Shown in pieces: positions 10,230 through 20,245 of a stretch of DNA of 22,495 nt (position 1 is its first letter; each line of letters opens with the position of its first letter). The DNA is from a virus. The position numbers were made by a program, and so were the translations under genes. Under the pieces are notes generated by a model, which was given only the letters and a program-made list of their open reading frames with translations, was not told the origin of the DNA and ran no database searches. The stretch covers positions 1-22,495 of IMG/VR virus record IMGVR_UViG_3300032456_000021; one strand, 5' to 3'.

Positions 10230-10577
10230 CTATGGTTGACGCGGCCCTGAGGTTAGAAGCCACCCACGGGAGACTGACAGCTCCACGTTTGCATGAATGA
10301 ATAGGTGGCAGGGGTTGCAGACGTGCAAGGCATTCTCGGCGTCTGCTGCCCCGCCCTGCGACCGACGGCGACGGTGGTGCATCACGGTGGCTCTGCGGGT
10401 GCAGCCTGGGGCGTCAGCCTCACACCATCCCAGGGAGCGCCGCTCGACAGCGGCGCGGACCGACGGGTGGCACTCAGCCTTGGACTTCGACGGGTTGCGC
10501 TTCATGGCGGTGCGTCGCATCGACAGACGCTGCTTCGGGCCTCTGGGTGGGCCTTTGGGCTGCGGGGGGCCACTCAC
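10230..10577 (-). CDS. HNH endonuclease (small, between connector and tail genes)
   Basis: A 115-residue HNH nuclease if translation begins at the GTG at 10577, which overlaps the upstream stop as GTGA, the habit of this operon. The N-terminus is Pro/Arg/Lys rich (about residues 2-35). The nuclease core has C52 and C59, the HH pair at 67-68 ('TVMHHRRRRSQGG'), N82 and a 'CNPCHLFIH' block with C87, C90, H91 and H95, consistent with a zinc-supported beta-beta-alpha-metal fold. Such single-domain nucleases are common in phages; some are free-standing homing enzymes and others help packaging. Position away from the terminase genes fits a mobile or homing gene better, but this is inference. A later ATG at 10520 is the alternative start. 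Confidence 0.85.
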   Translation of the reverse strand: MSGPPQPKGPPRGPKQRLSMRRTAMKRNPSKSKAECHPSVRAAVERRSLGWCEADAPGCTRRATVMHHRRRRSQGGAADAENALHVCNPCHLFIHANVELSVSRGWLLTSGPRQP

Positions 10578-11296
10578 GACACCGTCACCAGCGACCAGTT
10601 GTTGTCCAGCTCTGGCGTCCACACTGCCAGCACCCCCATCCCGCGAGGGGCGAAGCGATCAAGGAACCGGCCCACGGCCGGGATGCCAAGCGCCTCTGCT
10701 TCCTCGGCAGCATCGAGCGACACGCTGACCCCTTGGACGTTCGCTGAGGTCACGCCTCGCAGTCGCGACAAGGTGGTGGGGTCTTTCATCATCTGGCAGA
10801 CCAGCTCGACAGTGGCCATCACCGTGATGCGAGAAGGCGCGTTGCCGAACGAGTGGGTGACGGTGAACGTGCCTTCTTCGGTGTTGGCCTTGGTGATGTC
10901 GTTCGACGTCGGCCATGAACCCACGCGCCGGAACAGGTAGCTCCCGTTGTAGATGCCGTACTCGCTCGCGTTGAGAGCGACACCGTTGATCTTCACCTGC
11001 GCCACCGACGCAGATGGTCCAGGCAGCGGGATGGGATTGAGCAGCATTTCACTGCTGTTGCCCCCGAACCCCATCCACCCGACCGGGCCACAGGGGTAGC
11101 CGCTGGAAATCGGATAGACGGTGCGCGTACACCGCCCATGCACTCGACCCCCAGAGGCGACGTACAAGAAGTCGCTGGCTTCGTCGATCAGCTCTTGAAT
11201 CAGCGCACCGTGGTCGCTGTCGGTGTACGCGCAGCCGCACGGCGCTTCGAGGACGTCGACGACGGTGGCGAACGATTGGCACGCTAGTTCGGGCAT
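10574..11296 (-). CDS. Head-to-tail adaptor/connector protein
   Basis: A 240-residue protein that probably joins the portal to the tail. The N-terminus has a helix pair with 'ALIQELIDEASDFLYVASGG', the usual signature of actinophage head-to-tail adaptors (helical domain in which the 'IDEASDxLY' stretch recurs). A beta-rich middle follows ('ASVAQVKINGVALNASEYGI', 'YLFRRVGSWP'), and a helical region 'ATVELVCQMMKDPTTLSRL' precedes the C-terminal strand region. The ATG start at 11296 lies 9 nt after the upstream stop, without a Shine-Dalgarno sequence. The stop overlaps the following HNH start. The gene is the first structural gene after the glycosyltransferase cassette, separating it from the portal by about 10 kb, which is unusually far. 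Confidence 0.8.
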   Translation of the reverse strand: MPELACQSFATVVDVLEAPCGCAYTDSDHGALIQELIDEASDFLYVASGGRVHGRCTRTVYPISSGYPCGPVGWMGFGGNSSEMLLNPIPLPGPSASVAQVKINGVALNASEYGIYNGSYLFRRVGSWPTSNDITKANTEEGTFTVTHSFGNAPSRITVMATVELVCQMMKDPTTLSRLRGVTSANVQGVSVSLDAAEEAEALGIPAVGRFLDRFAPRGMGVLAVWTPELDNNWSLVTVS

Positions 11297-11308
11297 GGCG
11301 GAAGGCTA
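11297..11308 (-). promoter_or_regulatory. Possible leaderless -10 box before the adaptor gene
   Basis: TAGCCT (11308-11303) is followed by six bases and the ATG at 11296. The TAG is also the stop codon of the upstream gene, so the match may be chance. The best -35 hexamer at 17 nt is TTACTG-like. It is listed because the gene lacks a Shine-Dalgarno sequence and follows the five-gene cassette. Confidence 0.25.
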
Positions 11309-12265
11309 CACCCCACCCACAAGGTCAGTAATCCACTGTGCGGCGCACTGGCTGGATGTCATCCCGGCGGGCGGCTTCGCGTAGGCATAGTCGGCGGCCA
11401 GTCGGCCCCCTTCCTTGCAGACACCCGCCAGTCGCGTGTCGTGGAGTAAATCCCACGGGTTGAGCGACAGCAACCGCTCCGGCCCCTCGACTTGGATGCC
11501 GGGGACGTACTCCCAGAACCTCAGACCGTGCTCGACGTCGCGCCGGTACCACGGAGCGTTGAGTGACACCACGGGGCGGCCGATGAGCGCGAACTCGTAG
11601 GCGAGCGAGCTGTTGTCCACCATCAAGATCGACGCCTGGGCGAAGACCTCTTCATCGGTGTAGAGAATCTCGACGTCGTAGTCTTCCCACATGCGGTTCA
11701 TTGCCCCGCGCCACTTCGGGTGCTCGTGGCCGAAAACCCTAAACCCCATCGACTTGTAGAGGTTGATGATCTCGTGGAGCTGCGGGCCGTAATGAAGGTA
11801 CGCCGACCTCGCTTCGGGTGCGGTAGAGCCGTTCCAGTGCCAGGCGAAACAGATCGACGGTTTCTCGGGCATCGGGGCATTGAGCCACTTGTCCATCTTT
11901 GGGCAGCCGACCGCCACTGACGGGGCCGACGTCCATCTCTCGGCCACCGTTTCGCTGGGGGCGATGAAGCCGATCACACCAGAGTGCCGACGGCCACCGG
12001 AGCCAGAGTACGACGGGTCATGAAGTGCGTCGACGTAGACCTGCCCGGCACCGTGCTCGACGTAGATCATCGGGCACTGACCACGTAGCGGGTTGACGTC
12101 CTGCCATCCAGCGACCATTGCAATGCGGCCCATCGGTGGGCGGGTTGCCTCGCCAGGCGGAGCCATCGGAAGTACGTTGCCGCGCAGGTGGTCGGGGAGC
12201 GCCTCGAAGATGGGCAGGAGATGACTCTGGTAGTGGCTCTCGCTAGAGACAACGTCGATCTTCAC
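11306..12265 (-). CDS. CDP-glycerol glycerophosphotransferase-like (teichoic-acid-type) transferase
   Basis: A 319-residue GT-B-fold protein resembling the TagB/TagF family, which transfers glycerol phosphate from CDP-glycerol in wall teichoic acid synthesis. Visible family marks: 'YVEHGAGQVY' with H71, 'VGCPKMDKW' (120-127, the counterpart of 'xGxPKxD'), 'CFAWHWNGS' (139-146), 'FGHEHPKW' with H180 and H182, and 'MVDNSSLAYEFALIGRPVV' (D217, S219, S220), the donor-site block. The two key histidine regions and the D-x-S-S block are kept, so it looks active. It lacks the membrane-associating N-terminal region of bacterial TagF and is shorter. The GTG start overlaps the upstream stop (GTGA). The substrate is unknown: glycerol phosphate on a virion glycan, or another polyol phosphate. 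It could also be a related polysialyl/hexose-phosphate transferase. Confidence 0.75.
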   Translation of the reverse strand: MKIDVVSSESHYQSHLLPIFEALPDHLRGNVLPMAPPGEATRPPMGRIAMVAGWQDVNPLRGQCPMIYVEHGAGQVYVDALHDPSYSGSGGRRHSGVIGFIAPSETVAERWTSAPSVAVGCPKMDKWLNAPMPEKPSICFAWHWNGSTAPEARSAYLHYGPQLHEIINLYKSMGFRVFGHEHPKWRGAMNRMWEDYDVEILYTDEEVFAQASILMVDNSSLAYEFALIGRPVVSLNAPWYRRDVEHGLRFWEYVPGIQVEGPERLLSLNPWDLLHDTRLAGVCKEGGRLAADYAYAKPPAGMTSSQCAAQWITDLVGGV

Positions 12266-13275
12266 AGCATGGACTCCATCTCGTCAAGGTAGCACTGACG
12301 CCAGTCAGCCCAGTATGGCACCATCCAACTTTGCTGTTCGCGTGCTGCTTTGAGGGCGGCGGGCTGGGCAAGATTATCTATCTCGGCAGCGAAGGAGGGG
12401 GTATTCACGTCGACGATCAGCACCGGCCCGCAGGCAAAGGACATAGGGCGGCGATGTTGGATGGCTGGACGAACGGCAGCCAACTCATCGTTGGGGGAGC
12501 AGTCGGGCATCATCACCACCAACCCAGAGGCTGCCGCTTCCAATGCGGGAAGGCAGAGCCCCCCGTACCGCCTCGGCATTACCAACACGTCAGCGCCCGC
12601 GTACAAGTCCCGCTTGTTGTCGACGCCATCTGGGTGGAGATCAAACTCAATGTTGCGCTGGCGACGGAACTCGGGAAGCTGCCCGTCGATGCCGAACACC
12701 GACAGCTTCACGTCGGCCCGGACGTACCGCATGATCTGGACCAGCAAATCGGTTCCGTTGCGGTCGGCGTAGGCGCGCTTGCCCACAACGTGGGTGAGGT
12801 GGAGCCGGTGGTCGTCGGTCGAGGCGGCGGGGGCTACGGGCGACATCGGGACGGGCATCACCTTCCCGGCTGGCAGTTGGTCGAGCCTCCACTTCGTCGG
12901 CCACCACCATGCGTCGGGGTGGGGAATCGAAGGGTCGGTGGTGTGACGCACGAACTCGGGGTTGCCTTGGATGATCAGCTTCACGCCCATCTCGCGACAC
13001 CACAGCGGCATACGCCAGTCGTTCGGGGTTTCGACGGTAAAGACGACGTCGAGGCCGTCCAGCCATTCCCTTACGAGCGTCTCGTCGAGTTGGTGGTTCT
13101 TGTCGTCGTAGCTGGCCCAGGTGGCGTTCTGGTACCAGTCGGGAGCTACTACGCAATCAGGGCGAGGCATCCGCACGAGCAACACGCGGTCGACAGGCAT
13201 GTTGTCGTAGAAGTTCTTGCTTTGGATCGCGATGCCGCGAGCGATCTCACACCTTGCGATTAGGCCGAGACGCAT
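12262..13275 (-). CDS. GT4-like glycosyltransferase (GT-B fold)
   Basis: A 337-residue glycosyltransferase. The N-terminus 'MRLGLIARCEIARGIAIQSK' and the following 'FYDNMPVDRVLLVRM' match phage and bacterial GT4-like enzymes. The C-terminal donor domain has 'THVVGKRAYADRNGTDLLVQ', 'VKLSVFGIDGQLPEF', and 'YAGADVLVMPRRYGGLCLP' leading into 'ALEAAASGLVVMMPDCSP' (about residues 225-260), which is the nucleotide-sugar region; the first acidic residue of the usual E-x7-E pair is not obvious. I choose ATG 13275 over the longer frame from 13392 because of the family-like N-terminus and an AGAGG Shine-Dalgarno 7 nt upstream. It overlaps the end of the HNH gene by 29 nt. Acceptor and sugar cannot be read from sequence. 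Confidence 0.82.
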   Translation of the reverse strand: MRLGLIARCEIARGIAIQSKNFYDNMPVDRVLLVRMPRPDCVVAPDWYQNATWASYDDKNHQLDETLVREWLDGLDVVFTVETPNDWRMPLWCREMGVKLIIQGNPEFVRHTTDPSIPHPDAWWWPTKWRLDQLPAGKVMPVPMSPVAPAASTDDHRLHLTHVVGKRAYADRNGTDLLVQIMRYVRADVKLSVFGIDGQLPEFRRQRNIEFDLHPDGVDNKRDLYAGADVLVMPRRYGGLCLPALEAAASGLVVMMPDCSPNDELAAVRPAIQHRRPMSFACGPVLIVDVNTPSFAAEIDNLAQPAALKAAREQQSWMVPYWADWRQCYLDEMESML

Positions 13276-13789
13276 TGACCCCACCTCTTTCCTCGCGATC
13301 GAGAACCCGACACTGACACGGATGAACCCGGTCGCGTCGCCGCCATTCACCACTACCGTTGCAGAGTTCGCAGTTGGAGTCAGCGTCGACAAGGCGACCC
13401 ATCAGGCGGGCGAGACGGCGATTCTCTTTCACTTCCACCCACTGGCGAACATCGGCTGGGCGGGAAGGGTTGGGGAGTTCCTGTCGCCTGATTTCCCCGC
13501 GCAGCATCCCCAGAGCGCAGTTGTCGGACATCACCGCCCGGAACTCAGCTTCGGTCAACATGTCCTTGCTCTTGTTGCACGAGTAGCAACAGATCGCGAT
13601 GTTGGCTCGCTCGTTGCTTCCGCCTCGGGCCTTCGGAATGCGATGGTCGCCGGTGGCCCTATTGCGTGCTGTGTTGACGACGTCGCCCGACACCTGCTGT
13701 CCGCAGTATTCGCAGAACACTTCGGCTGAGTTTTGGAACGCTTCACGCACGGCGACGCGGGTGATCGACTCGGTGTATTCGTAGGTCAT
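13247..13789 (-). CDS. HNH endonuclease with a second C-terminal zinc motif
   Basis: A 180-residue HNH nuclease inside the glycosyltransferase cassette. The core is complete: 'CEYCG' (C26, C29), 'GDHRIPKARGGSNERANIAI' (D48, H49, N63) and 'CYSCNKSK' (C68, C71, N72). A separate C-terminal module has 'CELCNGSGEW' and 'HPCQC' (C140, C143, C158, C160), a DnaJ-type CxxCxGxG zinc ribbon that may help DNA or partner binding. The start overlaps the stop of the upstream glycosyltransferase (ATGA) and the end overlaps the next glycosyltransferase start by 29 nt, so the gene is fully embedded in the operon. It may be a homing-type enzyme that moved with the cassette. A packaging role is less likely here. 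Confidence 0.88.
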   Translation of the reverse strand: MTYEYTESITRVAVREAFQNSAEVFCEYCGQQVSGDVVNTARNRATGDHRIPKARGGSNERANIAICCYSCNKSKDMLTEAEFRAVMSDNCALGMLRGEIRRQELPNPSRPADVRQWVEVKENRRLARLMGRLVDADSNCELCNGSGEWRRRDRVHPCQCRVLDREERGGVNASRPNRKV

Positions 13790-15450
13790 TGCCCGAACTC
13801 CATGTCGAACTTGCTTTCGTCACCGCGAGCATCCAGATGCTTGGACCTCAGGATGCTGCCTTCGGGGTGGTAGATCGCCAGGCGGTGGCCGGGCTGCCAT
13901 TGAACAACGGAGTGCATCTTGTCTTCGATCATGGTGCGCGATGTCAGCGGGAAATGGTCGCGCAGAATGCGACGGTAGTAGTTGGTGTTCGCGACGTGAG
14001 GGCGCTGAGACCATTGACGCGTGCGACGCAACGGCACCCCCAAGATGTCTTTCGTCCGATGGTCGGTCATCAGGTGCTCGTGGACGTCAAGGATGCAAGA
14101 CTCATGGTGGAACCTGAGCACGTCGAGGTGCCCGTTCGCTACGACGTCGACGACGTTGGCCCAGGGGATGAAGTCATCGGCGAGTGGGGTGTCGTGCTCC
14201 ATGAACAGAAGGCATGGGGACACGACGCGCACGAGCGCCCGCTTCGTCGTGTTGGCCTGATGCCCCCAAGACTCAGCGATCACCGGCAACACACTGTGGT
14301 AACGGCGCGCCCACATGCACAGGTTGTAGAGGTACTGCGCGTAGTCCCAGGCCATCTGCGCCTGCTCGGGGCGCACTCCGTCGCAAGCGATGAGAACGTC
14401 GACGCCAGGGAGCTGCCTCTCCACCGAGTCGAGGGTTGCGCGGATGATGTCGAGGCTCGGGTTGGAGGGAACGGGCGAGGTGACCATGACGACCTGCAAG
14501 TCGGGGGTCGCTTGGTCGATCTCGGCACCCAGTTGCGTGAGATCGCTAATGAGCTGGTCGAGCATCAGCGACTTCTGCAACTGCCACCACGCTGAGCACT
14601 TCGCAGCGAGAAGGTGACGGTCGGCGAGCGAGGCTTCGATGACCCCACCCACGTCTTCCCAGTTGATGATCTTGGGCATCGGGACATTCCCGTAGACGAA
14701 CGACCAGTAGTCGGTTTCGCCGTCAGGTGTGGCGGTGTCGACGAGCGGGATGCACCCAGCTTCCAGGGCCTCATACACCCTGAACGTGTCGACCGACTTC
14801 GGCCCCGACGGGCAGGGGACAATCCAGGTGTGGGCCAACTCCTGGGCGTACATCTCAGCGGGCAGCCCTTGGGCGAAACCACTGGTTGGGCGGAACCGCC
14901 CGGCGACACGAGCGCGAGCCTTCCTGAGACCGTTTGCAGCCTGTTTGCGGCGGGTGTTGGTGATCTGACCGGCGAACGACCACAAGATGTCCTTGTGGTC
15001 TGCCTCCGGCCAATGCTCGTCGATCAACTCGGGGGTTGCCGCCCCCCAGCCATTGCCGAAGAAGAACCCGAAGTCGGCCATGTCGGCGTAGTGCTTCGGG
15101 TCTGGCATCTGCACCCAGAAACGAATGTTGTCGTGCTTGATTCCCTTCCACGGAAATTGCCCCTCTTCGTCGCCGCACAAGATCAGCAGCACCCCGTCAT
15201 ATCGGGCGAGCTGACCGTTGAGCGCTGCGATGTCTTCTGGCGAGGTGTGGTGGCGGGCGGGGACTACGACGATCGCCGGGCCACCGATGCCGTCCCCGAC
15301 GGCGACATGCTCGAACTCAAGGTCGTGCCGCCACAGTGTGCCGCTGAACAACGCTTCGAGGATGCGGGTGTCCCACGGGCCGCGAGCGTCAATGTTGTCG
15401 TGGTTTGAGAACCAGACGACGGGAATGGGGCCGCTCGTGTCCTGCTTCAT
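13786..15450 (-). CDS. Two-domain glycosyltransferase: exostosin-like GT-B plus GT-A
   Basis: A 554-residue protein with two transferase-like halves. The first (about 1-310) ends in an exostosin/GT47-type donor region: 'CPSGPKSVDTFRVYEALEAG' then 'CIPLVDTATPD' (about 211-240). The second (about 315-554) looks like a GT-A enzyme: 'VVMVTSPVPSNPSLDIIRAT' with 'GVDVLIACDG' at its start and 'LLFMEHDTPLADDF' near 412-425, where 'EHDTP' sits in the position of the metal-binding DxD. A single chain could add two sugars in turn. I choose ATG 15450 (reading MKQDTSGP) since the longer upstream frame from 15621 overlaps the previous gene and has no family-like sequence. It starts 4 nt after the preceding stop and ends in an ATGA overlap with the HNH gene. 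Confidence 0.82.
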   Translation of the reverse strand: MKQDTSGPIPVVWFSNHDNIDARGPWDTRILEALFSGTLWRHDLEFEHVAVGDGIGGPAIVVVPARHHTSPEDIAALNGQLARYDGVLLILCGDEEGQFPWKGIKHDNIRFWVQMPDPKHYADMADFGFFFGNGWGAATPELIDEHWPEADHKDILWSFAGQITNTRRKQAANGLRKARARVAGRFRPTSGFAQGLPAEMYAQELAHTWIVPCPSGPKSVDTFRVYEALEAGCIPLVDTATPDGETDYWSFVYGNVPMPKIINWEDVGGVIEASLADRHLLAAKCSAWWQLQKSLMLDQLISDLTQLGAEIDQATPDLQVVMVTSPVPSNPSLDIIRATLDSVERQLPGVDVLIACDGVRPEQAQMAWDYAQYLYNLCMWARRYHSVLPVIAESWGHQANTTKRALVRVVSPCLLFMEHDTPLADDFIPWANVVDVVANGHLDVLRFHHESCILDVHEHLMTDHRTKDILGVPLRRTRQWSQRPHVANTNYYRRILRDHFPLTSRTMIEDKMHSVVQWQPGHRLAIYHPEGSILRSKHLDARGDESKFDMEFGQ

Positions 15451-15454
15451 GGGG

Positions 15455-16456
15455 TCACGTCCAAGCCGACCTTGTGAGCAGCTCCACGAGTTGCTCCATG
15501 CGGCGTTCGTAGGTGTGATGTTCAAGCACTTCAAGTCGCCCTCGCCACGTCGCTGCCGAGTTGTAGCCGTAGCGGTCGACGAGGCGTTTCTCGATGAGAG
15601 CGCCGAGCGCTTCCCAATCAAAGGCGGGCCAAGTAATCACCGACCCATGAAACGCTTCGACTAGACCGGGCACCTCGGGGTGAAGGAGAAGGCCACCGCG
15701 ACCGAGCGTTTCCGGCACGCGGTCACTCCAGTAATTGGGCAGGCCAGTGCCTGCGAAACACGAGTCGCCGATGACGATGTCGACGGAGGCGTACAGGTCT
15801 TGCAGGTCTCGGCCGCGCACCGCGTGGCAGCCCGGCTGCGGCCAGAAGGAGCAGTCGCGTCGGAAGTTCTTCTTCAACCAGGCGACCAGTTCGTGACGGT
15901 GCTCATGCTCTTTGTGGTAGCTGCCGTCATGGGAGCCGACGAAAGCCAGCTTCGAGTGGTACTCATCACGGGACGTCCCCACCTCGCATTCGGCTCGCGA
16001 CACGCCCGGTGGGAACCAGACGTGGTTGACGCCGTGCCCGGCAAACTCTTCATCGTGGCCGCCGTCGGCCGTGATGACGAGATCACTCTCGAAGAACGGC
16101 TCGCTGATCTGATGGACGCGAGGGAGCCCGAACCAGATGTCGAGGTGGTAGCTGACCGTCGGCACGGTGAGTAGCTTCGCCTGACCGAGCATCGCCCGCT
16201 GTAGGCCGTGAGCGATGGCTTCGCCGCCATCCCTGTAGATGGACTTCCAGTCCCAGCCGGTGCGAGTCCACAAGATGAAGTCGGGGTTCCCCGGCCAGGT
16301 GCGCCTGTTGCTCATGGCCAGGAAGGTGCCTGGGTCGTTCTCCTGCATCGGGATGACGACGTGCCCGTTTTCGATCAGTGCCCTGCGTAGGTGGTTCTCT
16401 GTCGAATGTTCAGGCTGGAAATTACCGATTTGGATGACGGTCGACGAGTTGGGCAT
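15455..16456 (-). CDS. Glycosyltransferase, GT-B (Glyco_trans_1_2/CgeB-like)
   Basis: First gene of the cassette, 333 residues. Visible features are a Rossmann-like start 'STVIQIGNFQPEHSTENHLR' (5-24), 'TVSYHLDIWFGLPRV' (100-114), 'KLAFVGSHDGSYHKEHEH' (169-186), which matches the mid-domain of CgeB-like proteins, and 'SDRVPETLGRGGLLLHPEVP' (244-263), the 'RxxExLxxGG' donor-site block. It therefore probably transfers a sugar from a nucleotide donor in the cytoplasm; acceptor unknown. The ATG has no Shine-Dalgarno sequence, but lies exactly six bases after a TAGTAT -10 box, so the mRNA is probably leaderless. A 179-nt gap separates it from the C1q-like gene upstream. Confidence 0.82.
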   Translation of the reverse strand: MPNSSTVIQIGNFQPEHSTENHLRRALIENGHVVIPMQENDPGTFLAMSNRRTWPGNPDFILWTRTGWDWKSIYRDGGEAIAHGLQRAMLGQAKLLTVPTVSYHLDIWFGLPRVHQISEPFFESDLVITADGGHDEEFAGHGVNHVWFPPGVSRAECEVGTSRDEYHSKLAFVGSHDGSYHKEHEHRHELVAWLKKNFRRDCSFWPQPGCHAVRGRDLQDLYASVDIVIGDSCFAGTGLPNYWSDRVPETLGRGGLLLHPEVPGLVEAFHGSVITWPAFDWEALGALIEKRLVDRYGYNSAATWRGRLEVLEHHTYERRMEQLVELLTRSAWT

Positions 16457-16637
16457 GGAGACATACTATGTCATCACGGCTGACGGCGCAACAGTCAGAT
16501 TTCAGGCGGGGTGTCCATGCCGCCGTGGCGGCCGCCGGATAGTGCGAGGAGGTTGCTCCCCGGACCGAGAACCCGCAGACGTACCCGCCGGGCGGGAGTC
16601 CTGTGACGGCATTGTTGAGTAGATCGCGTAGTTCTTC
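16422..16637 (-). other. Open frame continuing past the C1q-like gene stop, with no start codon
   Basis: In the +1 frame relative to the C1q-like gene, 71 codons are open from the overlapping base of its TGA to a TAA at 16424-16422. There is no ATG, GTG or TTG in this frame before it crosses into the glycosyltransferase. The encoded string looks protein-like ('EELRDLLNNAVTGLPPGGYV', 'CGFSVRGATSSHYP'), and codon third positions are GC-rich in the middle part. It may be a frameshift extension of the C1q-like protein, a decayed gene, or chance. It fills the gap 16457-16635, which otherwise holds only the cassette promoter and two short GC hairpins. Confidence 0.25.
16457..16491 (-). promoter_or_regulatory. 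Promoter of the glycosyltransferase cassette (TTGCGC-N17-TAGTAT), leaderless
   Basis: TTGCGC (16491-16486) and TAGTAT (16468-16463) are separated by 17 nt, and six bases separate the -10 from the ATG at 16456, placing +1 on the start codon. The -10 is the centre of a perfect palindrome, GACATAGTATGTC (16472-16460), which could be an operator. The -10 block nearly repeats that before the chaperone gene (13 of 14 bases). Confidence 0.7.
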
Positions 16638-17094
16638 AGGTGTATTTCGTAATGGCGATGTTGTAACCGTATGTGCCTGTGCGGGAGTCGCCGTTATAGA
16701 GTTCCAGTAGCACGTCGGTACTTTCAGGCACTGCTATCGTCGCTTGAATCGTCATCAGCAGGCTACTGGGCGCTCCACGTGGGGATTGGCTTCCCTTGAC
16801 TTCCATGTAGAAGCTGTCTCCTTCGGTCAAGATCATCTCAAGTGAGAAATTCACGGCTGAGTACGGGGTGGGGTAAACACTCCACGAAATATTGAAGAAG
16901 TACAGGCCCGCAGGTAGCAGTAGCTGGCCTGCGGCGGCGTCCCACCAACCACCAAGGTCTTCTGTGCTTGCAGTCGCTTCGTAAGCGAAAGTACCGCCAG
17001 GTAGAGCAAGACCGGTTGCGTCATCGGTGTACTCAGTGCCTGGGGCAATGGCTGAGCCTCCGGCCCCGCCACTGGGGAGTGCTCCGGTGGCCAT
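16636..17094 (-). CDS. C1q/TNF-like jelly-roll virion protein
   Basis: A 152-residue protein with an all-beta C-terminal part resembling the C1q/TNF-like fold: 'GQLLLPAGLYFFNISWSVYP' (the 'aGxYxFxxxvxf' block), 'SLEMILTEGDSFYMEV', 'LLMTIQATIAVPESTDVLLE' and a closing 'GTYGYNIAITKY'. The N-terminus is Gly/Ala-rich. In phages such domains often trimerise and are found on head fibres, decorations or tail fibres. I start at ATG 17094, since GGAGGG lies about 7 nt upstream and the start is one base after the preceding stop; a longer frame to 17241 overlaps the upstream gene. GC is about 51% in 16621-16860 (123 of 240 counted), well below neighbours near 62%, suggesting recent acquisition. Role inferred from fold and position. 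Confidence 0.65.
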   Translation of the reverse strand: MATGALPSGGAGGSAIAPGTEYTDDATGLALPGGTFAYEATASTEDLGGWWDAAAGQLLLPAGLYFFNISWSVYPTPYSAVNFSLEMILTEGDSFYMEVKGSQSPRGAPSSLLMTIQATIAVPESTDVLLELYNGDSRTGTYGYNIAITKYT

Positions 17095-17095
17095 C

Positions 17096-17980
17096 TCAAC
17101 CCTCCAGGGCGTAGGAGGCGAGCACGGCGGTGACGGGGCAGGGGTCGAAGACGAGAATTGCGTAGCCAGCAAGAAACTGGGCGAACGTATTGCGGTTCCA
17201 CGGGGTGGCGAGTGTGCCGTTGAGGGTTTCAGCCCCAACACCCACGAAGCCCGGTGCGGTCGTCGCGAACCAGACCGGGCCAGAAGCGTAAACCCAGTCC
17301 GTTGCGGCCGACGATGAGGCTTGCCCAGTGGGCTGAGTGGGGTTCAGGTACCCAGCATCGGAGACCAAGACATTGCCTGCGGGCGTCTCCCACATACCGT
17401 TGACGTTGACCGACAGACCGTAAGAGGTGACCGCCTGGGCGAGGAGGCCAGGGCTGAGGTGGATGATTCCCACGCCGCCTTGGAGGTTCTCGGCGATCTC
17501 TTCTTCGAGGATCGCCAGTGCATTCCAGACCGGAGTGGCCGCGACGCCAAAGGCCGCGCCGTTAGGCGCATGGGCTTCGCTTGACAGCGACATCCCGCTC
17601 GACCCGGTGCCGCCCAGAAGTTCGCGTGCCACAGCGGCTGAGACCATCTGTTCGTAGCGGACAGACAAGATGAGCTGCACGTCGCTGAGTTGGTAATCGA
17701 GCAGACTGCCCTTCATCGCGTCGATGATGCGGAACGGAGTCTGAGTAACCCACGGAACGCATTCCGACGGGACGACGGCGAATGAGCCATCGTCGCAAAC
17801 GATCTCACTGTCAACTTGCAGGCTACGGCACGGCCACGGCTCAAAGGTGACCCCGTCGAGCCAGCGCAACGGGTTGACACCCTCCTGGGTCGGCAGTGGG
17901 GACGCGATGTCCAGCAGGCGTCGCGGCTGGCGCGGGCCAAGGGGCAGAAAGATGGCGGGGGGGGCTGTTGACACGGGCAT
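17096..17980 (-). CDS. Virion structural protein, possibly a second capsid-like or vertex subunit
   Basis: A 294-residue protein in the head module. After a Pro-rich N-terminus ('MPVSTAPPAIFLPLGPRQP') come 'SVRYEQMVSAAVARELLGGT' (about 105-125), a helix 'VWNALAILEEEIAENLQGG', a strand region 'GIIHLSPGLLAQAVTSYGL' (about 170-190), and 'GNVLVSDAGYLNPTQPTGQA' with 'DWVYASGPVWFATT'. This sequence of helix, then 'xxIxxSPxxxxxL', then 'GxxxVxDxGY' is reminiscent of the HK97-fold proteins, so a second capsid-related subunit or head decoration protein is possible. I do not recognise a named family. The ATG is preceded by AAGGTG 7 nt upstream, 10 nt after the previous stop. Confidence 0.5.
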   Translation of the reverse strand: MPVSTAPPAIFLPLGPRQPRRLLDIASPLPTQEGVNPLRWLDGVTFEPWPCRSLQVDSEIVCDDGSFAVVPSECVPWVTQTPFRIIDAMKGSLLDYQLSDVQLILSVRYEQMVSAAVARELLGGTGSSGMSLSSEAHAPNGAAFGVAATPVWNALAILEEEIAENLQGGVGIIHLSPGLLAQAVTSYGLSVNVNGMWETPAGNVLVSDAGYLNPTQPTGQASSSAATDWVYASGPVWFATTAPGFVGVGAETLNGTLATPWNRNTFAQFLAGYAILVFDPCPVTAVLASYALEG

Positions 17981-17990
17981 AATGGCACCT

Positions 17991-18335
17991 TTATGGGCGG
18001 AGGATGGTCGAGTAGGTCTTGGGCTTGCCGCGAGCGCTGATCACCGAGCGGGCACTGCTCCCGCGACCGATGCGCTGCACGTTCACCTTCTGCGAGGTCT
18101 GCGTGTAACCGCGGGCGTGGCCCTGGGTGGTGACGCGGCGACCGACACGGGTGACCCCGCGCTGCCCCTTGACCCGAGCCGGACGGTTCCGTAGGGCTGG
18201 CCGTCCAGCGTAGGTCCGCGTGGAGCGCGCCTTGGCCCCACCGCTGCGACCGAGAGACCCACCACCACGCCTACTGCGACCACCGCCACCGCCACCGCCC
18301 GCAAAGCGGCCACGCCAATCCCTACCCTGCCCCAT
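17991..18335 (-). CDS. Small Gly/Arg-rich basic protein of the head module
   Basis: A 114-residue, strongly basic protein of low complexity: 'GQGRDWRGRFAGG' followed by a seven-Gly run, then 'RSRRGGGSLGRSGG', then a Arg/Thr/Ser-rich stretch and 'GRGSSARSVISARGKPKTYS'. No domain is recognised. The N-terminal 'RDWRGRFAG' is a short motif seen at the beginnings of several phage structural genes. Its charge suggests contact with packaged DNA or acidic proteins, but this is inference. It has a GGGAAGGG ribosome site about 9 nt upstream and lies after the MCP terminator and a candidate promoter. Confidence 0.7.
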   Translation of the reverse strand: MGQGRDWRGRFAGGGGGGGRSRRGGGSLGRSGGAKARSTRTYAGRPALRNRPARVKGQRGVTRVGRRVTTQGHARGYTQTSQKVNVQRIGRGSSARSVISARGKPKTYSTILRP

Positions 18336-18360
18336 GATGAAAGCCCTTCCCTGTGGTCAT

Positions 18361-18397
18361 GTTCAACATACTGCCACCCGGCGGGCCGTCAGGTCTA
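18361..18397 (-). promoter_or_regulatory. Candidate promoter between the MCP terminator and the basic-protein gene
   Basis: CAGTATGT (18373-18366) carries the AGTATGT core found in the two stronger promoters at 16463-16468 and 8181-8186; its -10 differs by one base (CAGTAT). A TAGACC hexamer lies 18 nt upstream. It follows the MCP terminator, so it could restart transcription. A short ATG frame (18360, 12 codons) begins 7 nt after the -10 and overlaps the ribosome site of the basic-protein gene. Confidence 0.4.
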
Positions 18398-18417
18398 CAT
18401 GCTGGCCCAGAACGGCA

Positions 18418-18447
18418 AAGGCCCCCGGACTGCCGACCGGGGGCCTT
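18418..18447 (-). terminator. Terminator after the major capsid gene (11-bp stem)
   Basis: AAGGCCCCCGG and CCGGGGGCCTT pair perfectly over 11 bp around an 8-nt loop, beginning about 18 nt after the capsid stop codon at 18466-18468. On the minus strand the stem is followed by TTTGCCGTT, a short U-rich run. A terminator or attenuator here would let the capsid protein be made in excess of downstream genes. Confidence 0.85.
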
Positions 18448-18465
18448 GCGCTGTGTAGCTGGGGA

Positions 18466-20169
18466 CTAGCTCTGGTACCCGACTTCGTCGCCGCCCTGGC
18501 AGTTGATGACGATGTCGTCGATCTGGGCACCGTTCCAGCAGACCGGGATGTCCAAGATGTGAGCCGGGCAGCTCGTGGTGTCAACGACGCCCTCGAAGTT
18601 CTCGAAGAAGAAGGTGAACTGGTTGCGCCGGTTCGACTCGTTGTCGCGGTAGATGTTGTTGCCGGTCACGCCGATGGCCAGTTCGCCACGGTCGATGGCG
18701 GCGAACTTGCCGGGAGGGGCAATCATCACCTGCACCGAGGCGGGGATGCGGTTCAGGGTGCTCGTGCCCGGACCAGGCACAGCCACCGCGTACGTCGGGG
18801 TGTCCATGAACCAGTGGGGGGTCACGCCGACATCGTTGAACATGCCGTTGATCTGAGCGTCCGACGGGATGCTGAAACCACCGTCGACACGGCGGCGGCG
18901 CAGAATGTCCATCTTCATGCCCCACTGCACGTGGCGGGGGAGCCATGCCTGCATGTTGCCGTTGATGCTCCAGCGCTCCGACTCCTGGTACAAGGCCAGG
19001 TAGTTGAGGATCGTCGAGGTGATCGTGACCGAAGCGCCGTAGCCGAGGCGGGGGGCGGCGAGAGTATCGCAGCCGGTGGCCATTGCGTTGAGCAGCAGCT
19101 CCTCGGCGAGACGGGCGTGGGCCGCACCCAGACGGTTGAGGTATGCCTCGACCAGTTCCGGGTAGGTCATCGCCAGCATGTTCTTGACGGTCAGGCAGCG
19201 GTACACGCCGTACATGGTGTACTCGGTCGGGCTGCCACACTCGATGGTCTGGCAGGCGTCCTTCACGGCGTTGGCGTTGGCGTCATCGGCCGCGGTCCAC
19301 TGGCCGTAGCCAGTGGTGATGCTCGACAGCGACGGGGACGACATGATCGACACCTTGCCGCGAGGTGCCTGGAAGCCGGGGAGGCTGTTGAACACCGGGC
19401 GGTCGAGGACGTTGGCGCAGGCCAGGTCGTAATGCGGGGTGGCCGGGGCACACAAGGTGGCGGTCATTTCGGCATCGTCGAACTTGGCGAGGTTCAACAT
19501 CACGTCGTCGCCGAGAATCTGCTCCGGGGCGTAGTTGCCACGGATGCGTGCGATCTCGAAACGCTCGCTGGTCGAGGGGTTCAGCGACTTCGCCCGGTCG
19601 GCGGCCGCGTCAGCGACCTCAGACCACGAAGCGAAGTTGTCGCCGGGGTTCTTGCCCTGCACGCCAGAGGTGGCGAACAGGTACTCGGGGGCGGTGCGCT
19701 TCACCGAGGGGGTGCCAGTGGCGGGCGGCACGGCGGGGGTGCCGAACGTGGTCGGTACCAGCTTGCCGGGCTTGCCAGCCAGCGCCTCTTCGGCGGCAGT
19801 CGCGGCTTCCGCAGCAGCGGTTGCTTCCGCAGCAGCAGCAGCAGCGGCGACCTCGTCGGCGACGGCCTGCTCGGCTTCCAATGCAGCAGCAGCAGCAGCA
19901 GTTGCAGCGGCTTCGGCAGTAGCGGCCGCGGCGGCCTCGTCGGCGTCGGCGGAGGCGTTGTCGGCTTCCAGCGCGGCGGCAGCGTCAGCGTCGATCGCCC
20001 AGGCCGACAGAGCGTCAGCCTTCGCGAGATACGCGTCGACTTCCTTGCGCTCGTCGCCAGTCACGCCGGAGCGCAACTTGGAGACCGCAAGAGTCTTGAT
20101 GGCCTTGACTAGCCCGCGGGCTGCGTCGGCGCTGAGTGAGTTGATGGCTTCGGGAACCTGGGGCCACAT
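18466..20169 (-). CDS. Major capsid protein with N-terminal Ala-rich scaffold region
   Basis: A 567-residue HK97-type capsid protein. The first about 130 residues form an Ala/Glu/Asp-rich coiled-coil (including a run of six GCA-type repeats in the DNA at 19883-19900), which resembles the scaffold-like delta domain that is cut off during maturation. A flexible 'GKPGKLVPTTFG' linker follows. The capsid body includes 'FEIARIRGNYAPEQILGDDV', 'GYGQWTAADDANANAVKDAC', 'TMYGVYRCLTVKNMLAMTYP', 'LNRLGAAHARLAEELLLNAM' and a C-terminal 'FTFFFENFEGVVDTTSCPAH', all typical of an encapsidating lattice subunit. I start at ATG 20169 because CGGAGG lies 9 nt upstream; a longer frame from 20235 lacks a ribosome site. 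Many cysteines are spread through the body. It is directly downstream of its protease. Confidence 0.9.
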   Translation of the reverse strand: MWPQVPEAINSLSADAARGLVKAIKTLAVSKLRSGVTGDERKEVDAYLAKADALSAWAIDADAAAALEADNASADADEAAAAATAEAAATAAAAAALEAEQAVADEVAAAAAAAEATAAAEAATAAEEALAGKPGKLVPTTFGTPAVPPATGTPSVKRTAPEYLFATSGVQGKNPGDNFASWSEVADAAADRAKSLNPSTSERFEIARIRGNYAPEQILGDDVMLNLAKFDDAEMTATLCAPATPHYDLACANVLDRPVFNSLPGFQAPRGKVSIMSSPSLSSITTGYGQWTAADDANANAVKDACQTIECGSPTEYTMYGVYRCLTVKNMLAMTYPELVEAYLNRLGAAHARLAEELLLNAMATGCDTLAAPRLGYGASVTITSTILNYLALYQESERWSINGNMQAWLPRHVQWGMKMDILRRRRVDGGFSIPSDAQINGMFNDVGVTPHWFMDTPTYAVAVPGPGTSTLNRIPASVQVMIAPPGKFAAIDRGELAIGVTGNNIYRDNESNRRNQFTFFFENFEGVVDTTSCPAHILDIPVCWNGAQIDDIVINCQGGDEVGYQS

Positions 20170-20184
20170 AGCGGGCAACCTCCG
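20170..20184 (-). promoter_or_regulatory. Ribosome binding site of the major capsid gene
   Basis: CGGAGG (20184-20179) lies 9 nt before ATG 20169. This is what decides the start, since the longer frame beginning at 20235 has no ribosome site and a Pro/Arg-rich N-terminus unlike a capsid protein. Confidence 0.75.
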
Positions 20185-20245
20185 GTAGATCAGTGGTGAG
20201 TCGCAGTGTTGCCGCCGGACGGGCGGTAAGTCCACACCTGACGGA

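What the first reader, a model, noticed from the sequence alone, without database searches (positions are those of the whole stretch)
11306..16491. Self-contained sugar/glycerol-phosphate cassette with its own promoter inside a virion gene block
Four transferases (CgeB-like GT-B, exostosin-like plus GT-A fusion, GT4-like, teichoic-acid-type glycerophosphotransferase) and an HNH nuclease form one run of overlapping or closely abutting genes between the head genes and the head-tail adaptor, with a recognisable leaderless promoter at its head. Phage glycosyltransferases that decorate virion proteins are known in some mycobacteriophages. Adding a glycerol-phosphate-type step to three sugar steps would build a teichoic-acid-like glycan on the virion, and I know of no described system of that kind. 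A role in modifying the host surface is the alternative.
Basis: partly seen in the sequence, partly recalled or inferred. Interest (0 to 1): 0.78.

Follow-up and report, generated by a model that had tools for sequence, protein, structure and literature searches.

The report
Phage virion sugar-coating gene cassette
This phage carries a set of sugar-transferring enzymes among the genes that build its head, and the same set recurs in many uncultured phages with a varying last enzyme (here a relative of teichoic-acid makers), so it probably coats the virus particle with sugars.

Summary
Four transferase genes (CgeB-like GT, GT47 + GT-A-like fusion, GT4, TagF-like GT-B protein) run on the minus strand between the capsid genes and the head-tail adaptor. 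The HNH gene among them is probably an insertion. The claimed promoter is not supported.

Scans from three sides show a module. Of 79 loci found through the GT4, 71 also have the CgeB-like gene and 59 a recognised virion gene; all 187 virion hits lie on the GT4's strand. Order is fixed in this set (CgeB before GT4 70 of 70 on one strand, TagF-like after GT4 37 of 37). Within 6 kb after GT4 lies one of three transferases, never two: TagF-like (37), Che8 gp109-like (9), Che8 gp110-like (8). Che8 gp110 is reported essential for capsid glycosylation.

Best reading: a modular virion-glycosylation cassette using, in the window, a TagF/TarL-type enzyme. Virion decoration is well supported by inference but unproven. 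Glycerol-phosphate chemistry remains open: UDP-GlcNAc 2-epimerases match the fold almost as well, and a phage glycerophosphotransferase gene in print (SP-15) was assigned to DNA modification.

The parts
15455..16456 (-). CgeB-like GT-B glycosyltransferase, first gene of the cassette
   Evidence: PF13524 2.1e-7, phrog_28745 2.9e-36; present in 71 of 79 GT4 loci, once on the opposite strand
13786..15450 (-). two-domain transferase: N-terminal GT47/exostosin/RXYLT1-like domain (about 15450-14509) and C-terminal GT-A-like domain (about 14508-13789)
   Evidence: start revised by L003; PF24785 22.3 bits, below the 27 cut-off, in the window, 8 of 9 family members at E<=0.01; PDB profile hit to A075L 6e-4; C-domain has no Pfam or meaningful PDB hit
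12262..13275 (-). GT4-like glycosyltransferase
   Evidence: PF13692 3.6e-10; start revised; profile hit to a D-inositol 3-phosphate glycosyltransferase 0.003
11306..12265 (-). TagF/TarL-like GT-B transferase (PF04464-type); last gene of the cassette, at the position that varies between phages
13247..13789 (-). HNH endonuclease, probably a later insertion and not part of the module
   Evidence: PF01844 4.9e-10; matched in 2 of 83 TagF-like loci, the two nearest relatives
16457..16558 (-). 5' flank kept with the cassette: identical in relative L003 although the gene just upstream differs (recombination edge); not shown to be a promoter
10574..11296 (-). head-tail adaptor, starts 9 nt after the cassette
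   Evidence: phrog_783 2e-24
16636..17094 (-). small protein gene just upstream of the cassette, replaced by a different one in L003 apart from the first 40 bases or so; fold not determined (AF2 pLDDT 43)
17096..17980 (-). conserved capsid-block protein (phrog_779), the upstream structural neighbour in this lineage
18466..20235 (-). major capsid protein, a candidate acceptor
   Evidence: phrog_777 6.5e-43

Best explanation
The cassette is a virion-glycosylation module. It is expressed late, from within the head/neck gene block, and its soluble enzymes build a short glycan on one or more virion proteins while particles are assembled in the cytoplasm. A largely fixed part (CgeB-like GT, often a GT47 + GT-A-like fusion, GT4) adds sugars. 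The last position varies: in the window a TagF/TarL-type enzyme, in other phages with the same GT4 a Che8 gp109-like or gp110-like transferase; it either attaches the glycan to the protein or caps it. Extra methyltransferases or an epimerase vary the glycan between relatives. Shown: gene order, linkage, exchange at the last position, fold and conserved motifs. Inferred: late co-expression, acceptor, sugar identities, and the function itself.
For: (1) Module: GT4-found loci, 79 (all that were found): CgeB in 71, TagF-like in 37, GT47 in 31; CgeB-found loci, 80 kept of 102: GT4 in 58, TagF-like in 34, GT47 in 44. Order in the 79, same-strand hits: CgeB before GT4 70 of 70, GT47 before GT4 31 of 31, TagF-like after GT4 37 of 37; in the 152 loci of both sets, with many contigs counted twice, 119 of 121, 56 of 57 and 70 of 70. 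(2) Virion block: a recognised virion gene in 59 of 79 and 59 of 80 loci, 187 and 218 virion hits on the same strand and 0 opposite; in the TagF-like set 69 of 83 loci, 211 hits same strand and 2 opposite, capsid gene upstream in 41 of the 43 loci where one was recognised. (3) Last position: within 6 kb after GT4, TagF-like 37, gp109-like 9, gp110-like 8, none of these 22, contig cut 3, two together 0; 33 of 37, 9 of 9 and 7 of 8 start within 1.9 kb of the GT4 start. Non-redundant 65: 31/7/8/16/3, Fisher p 6e-6, label needs at least 7 changes on the GT4 tree. The gp110-like proteins are 39-54% identical to Che8 gp110, reported essential for capsid glycosylation (PMC12363180, passage). (4) gp109-like genes lie within 4.1 kb on the same strand in 26 of the 83 TagF-like loci (5.2 kb in one more), and a gp110-like gene directly upstream in one. 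(5) A Corndogvirus has an O-methyltransferase and three GTs between portal and capsid protease. (6) Nearest solved relatives of the GT47 half include A075L, which helps build the glycan of a chlorovirus capsid protein (abstract of PMC11571054). (7) No cassette protein has a membrane-like stretch (highest 1.58 against a 1.6 threshold, in GT4). (8) Close relative L003 has an FkbM methyltransferase inside the cassette.
Against: No virion protein has been analysed, and three GT4 proteins of the family found no match in the phage collection. In 14 of 83 TagF-like loci no virion gene was recognised; two (L075, L088) look non-structural by eye and one (L114) lies among transferase-like genes of a MAG. 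20 of 79 GT4 loci also lack a recognised virion gene. The three last-position families are exclusive only beside a GT4: among the 59 TagF-like loci without GT4, 27 also have a gp109-like gene and 1 a gp110-like gene, so these enzymes are not simply equivalent. 22 of 79 GT4 loci have none of the three. gp109 similarity is remote (22-31%). The loci are related and contigs recur between sets, so counts are not independent. The role of gp110 is taken from a citing paper, not the original. A phage glycerophosphotransferase gene in print (SP-15) was assigned to DNA hypermodification (PMC5977210, passages).
Confidence: 0.75

Rival explanations
1. Host-surface modification: the enzymes alter the host's wall or capsule glycan during infection to block superinfection or free progeny.
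For: TagF/TarL-like fold; one MAG homologue lies, by eye, among transferase-like genes (L114); GT4 and CgeB families are general polysaccharide enzymes (recalled).
Against: No membrane-like stretch in the cassette proteins, whereas seroconversion systems rely on membrane proteins (recalled); genes sit mostly inside the virion block on the same strand; the last position is shared with Che8 gp110-like proteins.
Confidence: 0.11
2. DNA hypermodification: the transferases decorate modified bases of phage DNA.
For: Bacillus phage SP-15 has a gene annotated as CDP-glycerol glycerophosphotransferase in a ten-gene cluster proposed to modify its DNA (passages of PMC5977210). Phage GTs that hypermodify DNA are cited in PMC12619734 (passage). 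DNA_methylase matches in 7 of 29 contigs, among them one inside the cassette of G003 and one beside the TagF-like gene of L075.
Against: Thymidylate-synthase-type genes in 0 of 29 contigs while the control rang in 9 of 14 genomes, whereas SP-15 is described with such synthases; Tet_JBP 0 of 29, but its control was silent, so inconclusive; placement in the head block. The contigs may be incomplete.
Confidence: 0.1
3. Passenger genes: GT genes accumulate in virion blocks by mosaic exchange without a virion role.
For: The cassette is absent from relatives: L013, L014 and L017 have one GT-A-like gene instead and Gordonia phage Kwekel shows no annotated transferase there.
Against: Conserved order, exclusive last position beside GT4 and invariant residues across 74 TagF-like proteins.
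Confidence: 0.04

Closest known systems
Virion glycosylation in mycobacteriophages Che8 and Corndog (Freeman et al. 2023, not held; seen only through passages of PMC12363180, PMC11256854 and PMC12619734)
   Same: Phage-encoded GT set; in a Corndogvirus (Krili) an O-methyltransferase and three GTs lie inside the head block; the Che8 gp110 and gp109 families occupy the same cassette position or neighbourhood in related phages.
   Different: The window has no gp110-like or gp109-like match but a TagF-like gene; the CgeB, GT47, GT-A, GT4 and TagF-like models do not match Che8 gp108, gp109 or gp110 (the rest of Che8 was not searched with them); Che8's GTs lie at the genome's right end.
Wall teichoic acid and capsule polymerases TagF, TarL, Cps3D (PF04464)
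   Same: Top fold matches: Foldseek 3l7j E 1.3e-8; VIA Z 19.7 TarL, 18.7 TagF; HP and D-x-S-S motifs align with TarL.
   Different: Only the catalytic GT-B part (aligned to TagF 353-721); window score below the Pfam cut-off; no membrane-like part; donor unknown; UDP-GlcNAc 2-epimerases follow at Z 18.3, a tie with TagF, and the GT SdgB is among the Foldseek hits at 6e-8.
Bacillus phage SP-15 gene 151, annotated CDP-glycerol glycerophosphotransferase (PMC5977210, passages)
   Same: A phage-encoded enzyme of that annotation near two glycosyl transferase genes.
   Different: Proposed by its authors to act in DNA hypermodification, with UDP-glucose dehydrogenase and other sugar genes; not compared with our family by sequence here.
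Chlorovirus PBCV-1 A075L, xylosyltransferase of the capsid-protein glycan
   Same: Virus-encoded exostosin-type GT among the nearest solved relatives of the GT47 half (E 6e-4); helps make the glycan of a major capsid protein (abstract).
   Different: N-glycan of an algal virus; the paper places A075L in family GT114; here the domain is fused to a GT-A-like domain in a tailed phage.
CgeB-like GT gene of Streptomyces phages Dryad and Yara
   Same: 33% and 32% identical CgeB-like protein with a methyltransferase two genes downstream.
   Different: Lies after the endolysin/lysin and next to a long hypothetical protein, beyond the tail genes; no GT4, GT47 or TagF-like match in the stretch read.
Virus Rctr41k hypothetical protein
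   Same: 32% identical TagF-like protein between a capsid/protease gene and head morphogenesis genes.
   Different: No other cassette gene matched in the stretch read; annotated as hypothetical.

Membership tests
PF04464 CDP-glycerol glycerophosphotransferase (TagF/TarL type) | score above the Pfam cut-off | tested here: not met
   window 19.2 vs 22.1 bits; 67 of 74 family members match at E<=0.01 and each of the three MAG genomes has a match over the cut-off
PF04464 CDP-glycerol glycerophosphotransferase (TagF/TarL type) | TagF/TarL GT-B fold | tested here: met
   AF2 pLDDT 95.5; top hits TagF/TarL, but UDP-GlcNAc 2-epimerases are within 1.4 Z of TarL and tied with TagF
PF04464 CDP-glycerol glycerophosphotransferase (TagF/TarL type) | conserved HG and HP-type histidines | tested here: met
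   H71-G72 and H182-P183 invariant in 74 sequences; HP aligned with TarL, HG with three MAG PF04464 proteins, which do not keep the HP proline; that these are catalytic in TagF/TarL is recalled, fitting the H444N and H300N structure titles
PF04464 CDP-glycerol glycerophosphotransferase (TagF/TarL type) | CDP-glycerol or CDP-ribitol as donor | not testable with these tools
   indirect: cytidylyltransferase-like gene 3.8-4.0 kb upstream of the TagF-like gene in 2 loci, matching TIGR01518 and the rfaE domain about equally and both far below their cut-offs
Che8/Corndog-type virion glycosylation | GT genes linked to virion genes | tested here: met
   (Che8's own GTs are not)
Che8/Corndog-type virion glycosylation | gp110-type transferase present | tested here: not met
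   no gp110-like or gp109-like match in the window's ORFs; gp110-like in 8 of 79 GT4 loci and 1 of 83 TagF-like loci
Che8/Corndog-type virion glycosylation | glycan on capsid or tail tube protein | not testable with these tools
   needs mass spectrometry
Exostosin GT47 / RXYLT1-like | Pfam score above cut-off | tested here: not met
   window: PF24785 22.3 vs 27 bits, PF03016 16.8 vs 33.4; the L015 homologue passes PF24785 with 29.2
Seroconversion-type host O-antigen modification | membrane flippase or polytopic transferase in the cluster | tested here: not met
   no 19-residue window reaches 1.6 in the five cassette proteins
DNA hypermodification GT cluster | base hydroxylase or dNMP hydroxymethylase in the genome | tested here: inconclusive
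   PF00303 0 of 29 with working control; PF12851 0 of 29 with silent control; contigs may be incomplete

The most novel reading that the evidence does not exclude
Tailed phages build a polyol-phosphate-containing, teichoic-acid-like glycan on their own virions. The TagF-like enzyme transfers glycerol- or ribitol-phosphate from a CDP-activated donor onto the cassette's glycan or onto a virion protein, at the cassette position where other phages use a Che8 gp110-type or gp109-type step; some relatives supply the donor with a cytidylyltransferase of their own.
Probability: 0.3. Interest if true: 0.82.

Novelty: new variant of a known kind. Interest (0 to 1): 0.62.

Why it matters
Virion glycosylation was reported from a few mycobacteriophages in the papers seen here. 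This analysis suggests it is a modular trait of many uncultured tailed phages, with an ordered cassette and a varying last transferase. The TagF-like family was found in 129 viral contigs against 3 loci in a collection of 84,980 bacterial and archaeal species genomes; both are lower bounds of a pattern scan. If confirmed, it would explain many orphan GT genes beside capsid genes, bear on how phages escape antibodies and surface recognition, and add a polyol-phosphate-type enzyme to virion decoration.

Tried and rejected
Nucleotide search of the cassette in 50,697 phage records gave nothing; protein searches gave Streptomyces CgeB relatives (9 records) and Rctr41k. The fusion and GT4 had no phage match, nor had two further GT4 proteins.

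Small upstream protein as a C1q-like head fibre and specific acceptor: rejected as unsupported. AF2 pLDDT 43 without an alignment, no Pfam match, and L003 keeps 97.6-99.7% identical transferases with a different protein there, so it is unlikely to be the sole acceptor.

Host: the capsid-family profile matched 3 of 296 sampled genomes of the phylum of G036 (the Solirubrobacteraceae MAG), without the cassette and nearly without other recognised phage genes. An actinobacterial host is suggested, not shown.

One scan with a single protein (17096) found only the 67-kb contig. Rfam: nothing in the window at gathering scores. Tet_JBP search is uninformative. Freeman et al. 2023 is not held; its results are cited through other papers' passages. 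In print: searches listed no paper that I recognised as describing a TagF-like virion enzyme; one listed paper (PMC5977210) describes a phage glycerophosphotransferase gene, for DNA. I opened only the papers named in this report. Subscription papers are mostly missing from that library.

Full report
WHAT IS THERE. The window is a whole IMG/VR virus record of 22,495 bases, possibly a fragment. Its main genes run on the minus strand: a protein cut by the contig end (portal side, by position), protease-like protein, major capsid protein (phrog_777), a conserved capsid-block protein (phrog_779), a small protein, the cassette, head-tail adaptor (phrog_783), a second HNH gene, a tail-tube-like protein, tape measure and tail genes (portal, protease, tail tube and tape measure are named by position and look, not by a call). 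The cassette is CgeB-like GT (16456-15455), a fusion of an exostosin/RXYLT1-like domain with a GT-A-like domain (15450-13786), an HNH gene (13789-13247), a GT4 (13275-12262) and a TagF-like protein (12265-11306), ending 9 nt before the adaptor.

CORRECTIONS TO THE FINDING. Two start sites are shorter than the longest ORFs. The promoter is not supported: 0 consensus sites in 10500-18500 against 1.3 expected by chance, and no terminator-like site between head genes and cassette or between cassette and adaptor. The 102 bases upstream of the CgeB start are, however, identical in a close relative (L003) in which the DNA further upstream is different, so the cassette edge is a recombination edge. 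The HNH protein was matched in 2 of 83 TagF-like loci, the two nearest relatives, so it is best seen as an insertion.

RELATIVES OF THE SAME PHAGE LINEAGE. Thirteen viral loci carry a close relative of the capsid protein. The 67-kb contig (L002/L004/L006) is 99-100% identical protein by protein. L003 (capsid 97%, transferases 97.6-99.7%) has an extra FkbM methyltransferase between CgeB and the fusion and another small upstream protein. L007 with its contig G003 (capsid 73%), L015 (44%) and L018 with its contig G009 (54%) carry the cassette in the same order with extra methyltransferase-like, GT-like or epimerase genes. L013, L014 and L017 have capsid and adaptor but one GT-A-like gene between them (weak Pfam matches only), and Gordonia phage Kwekel of the same capsid family shows no annotated transferase there. 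So the cassette is an optional, ordered unit.

THE TAGF-LIKE FAMILY. From a four-member profile, 129 viral contigs encode a relative (best 80 kept), against 3 loci in genome contigs of 84,980 species. In 74 aligned members H71, G72, G74, G120, H182, P183, D217, E224, R241, R249 and W251 are invariant, and 67 of 74 match PF04464 at E<=0.01; 9 also match UDP-GlcNAc 2-epimerase and 8 a GT4 model, with weaker best E-values. AlphaFold2 on 73 rows gave pLDDT 95.5. The top fold hits are TagF and TarL (Foldseek 1.3e-8; VIA Z 19.7 for TarL, 18.7 for TagF); non-hydrolysing UDP-GlcNAc 2-epimerases follow at 18.3, so the fold alone does not fix the donor. A profile search of PDB sequences aligned the HP and D-x-S-S motifs with TarL (0.0024), and the HG motif aligns with PF04464 proteins of a Desulfonatronum MAG. 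Two relatives carry a cytidylyltransferase-like gene 3.8-4.0 kb upstream of the TagF-like gene; it matches glycerol-3-phosphate cytidylyltransferase and the heptose adenylyltransferase domain about equally, both below cut-off, and by PDB sequence ethanolamine-phosphate and glycerol-3-phosphate cytidylyltransferases best. PF01467 was found in 3 of 29 contigs searched, not in the window's own 67-kb relative.

CONTEXT ACROSS PHAGES. I mapped in-house models of virion and transferase families on the 83 TagF-like loci. 69 have at least one recognised virion gene; 211 virion hits lie on the same strand and 2 on the opposite; a capsid gene, where recognised (43), is upstream in 41. Portal, terminase and capsid proteins of different PHROG families are involved. 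Fourteen loci have no recognised virion gene, three of them under 6 kb long; I looked at 12 of the 14: by eye some show other capsid or portal types, L075 and L088 do not look structural, and L114 lies among transferase-like genes. In this set GT4 is present in 24, CgeB in 21 (all with GT4) and GT47 in 10 (all with both). On the TagF-like tree the loci with and without GT4 need only 3 changes against 18.5 in shuffles.

INDEPENDENT ASCERTAINMENT. Starting from GT4 instead: 79 loci, of which 71 have CgeB (one only on the opposite strand), 37 TagF-like, 31 GT47, 59 a virion gene. Starting from CgeB: 80 loci (of 102 found), with GT4 in 58, TagF-like in 34, GT47 in 44, virion gene in 59. Order in the 79, same-strand hits: CgeB before GT4 70 of 70, GT47 before GT4 31 of 31, TagF-like after GT4 37 of 37. 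In the 152 loci of both sets, where many contigs count twice, 119 of 121, 56 of 57 and 70 of 70. The module lies between capsid genes and adaptor in some lineages, after the adaptor and before the tape measure in others, and before the terminase in most of the gp110-type ones.

THE LAST POSITION. Within 6 kb after GT4 lies a TagF-like gene in 37 of 79 loci, a Che8 gp109-like in 9, a Che8 gp110-like in 8, none of these in 22 (some of which show another GT-A-like gene by eye), and the contig is cut in 3; none has two. 33 of 37, 9 of 9 and 7 of 8 begin within 1.9 kb of the GT4 start. After removal of near-copies: 65 loci, 31/7/8/16/3, Fisher p 6e-6 (loci are related, so this is only a guide), and at least 7 label changes on the GT4 tree against 28 in shuffles. 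The gp110-like proteins are 39-54% identical to Che8 gp110 over most of its length. A passage of PMC12363180 names Che8 gp110 and Corndog gp38 as the two essential GTs for capsid glycosylation; passages of PMC11256854 and PMC12619734 describe glycans on virion proteins acting as a shield. Against simple equivalence: among the 59 TagF-like loci that lack a GT4, 27 also have a gp109-like gene and 1 a gp110-like gene, while 0 of the 24 with GT4 have either. In Krili, a Corndogvirus, an O-methyltransferase and three GT genes lie between portal and capsid protease, so the architecture has a precedent.

MECHANISM. Shown: composition, order, linkage to virion genes, exchange at the last position, conserved motifs, absence of membrane-like stretches. 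Inferred: late expression with the structural genes; assembly of a short glycan on a virion protein in the cytoplasm; the last gene as attaching or capping transferase. The fusion's first half is nearest to exostosin-type enzymes such as A075L, a xylosyltransferase of a chlorovirus capsid glycan, and to RXYLT1 (8 of 9 members at E<=0.01), which hints at, but does not show, xylose. The acceptor is unknown; because L003 keeps the cassette with a different small upstream protein, a conserved protein such as the capsid or tail-tube protein is more likely.

RIVALS. Host-surface modification is weakened by the position, soluble proteins and shared last position. Against it here: thymidylate-synthase-type genes in 0 of 29 contigs with a working control; DNA_methylase in 7 of 29; Tet_JBP uninformative. 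Pure passengers do not explain order and exclusivity.

NOVELTY. Virion glycosylation by phage GTs, also from inside the head block, is known, and a phage gene of this annotation is in print in a DNA context. What looks new, judged by the searches named under Tried and rejected, is the ordered cassette with a varying last transferase across many uncultured phages, and a TagF/TarL-type enzyme linked to virion genes. I therefore call it a new variant of a known kind, with the teichoic-acid-like chemistry as the bold but open case.

Noticed in passing
L101:6012-6446, L109:5936-6388: Cytidylyltransferase-like genes (TagD/rfaE type, below cut-off) 3.8-4.0 kb upstream of the TagF-like gene, downstream of the capsid gene.
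   Followed up: partly
L003:5940-6662: FkbM methyltransferase between CgeB and the fusion in a close relative of the window; a natural gain/loss pair.
   Followed up: partly
L029:1219-2172 (contig G003): C5-cytosine DNA methyltransferase-like gene (PF00145 2.2e-7) between GT4 and the TagF-like gene.
   Followed up: partly
window 13789-14508: C-terminal domain of the GT47 fusion: conserved in 10 members, invariant E-x-D, but no Pfam or meaningful PDB match; possibly an undescribed GT-A family.
   Followed up: partly
window 10230-10622: Second HNH gene overlapping the adaptor gene; matched in 4 of 83 TagF-like loci.
   Followed up: no
L009:12481-13197, L018:12705-13382: Collagen-like proteins (weak Pfam matches; BclA_C in L009) after the capsid-block genes in relatives; possibly head fibres.
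   Followed up: no
L013:12000-12668, L017:7562-8236: A single GT-A-like gene between capsid block and adaptor in relatives without the cassette; same place, minimal version.
   Followed up: partly
L126, L127, L128: Capsid-like genes of the window's family in genomes of the phylum of G036 (Solirubrobacteraceae MAG) with no other recognised phage gene except a terminase-like hit in L126.
   Followed up: partly
window 17991-18335: Small Gly/Arg-rich basic protein after the capsid gene; similar-looking basic proteins follow the capsid gene in L008, L009, L013 and L018.
   Followed up: no
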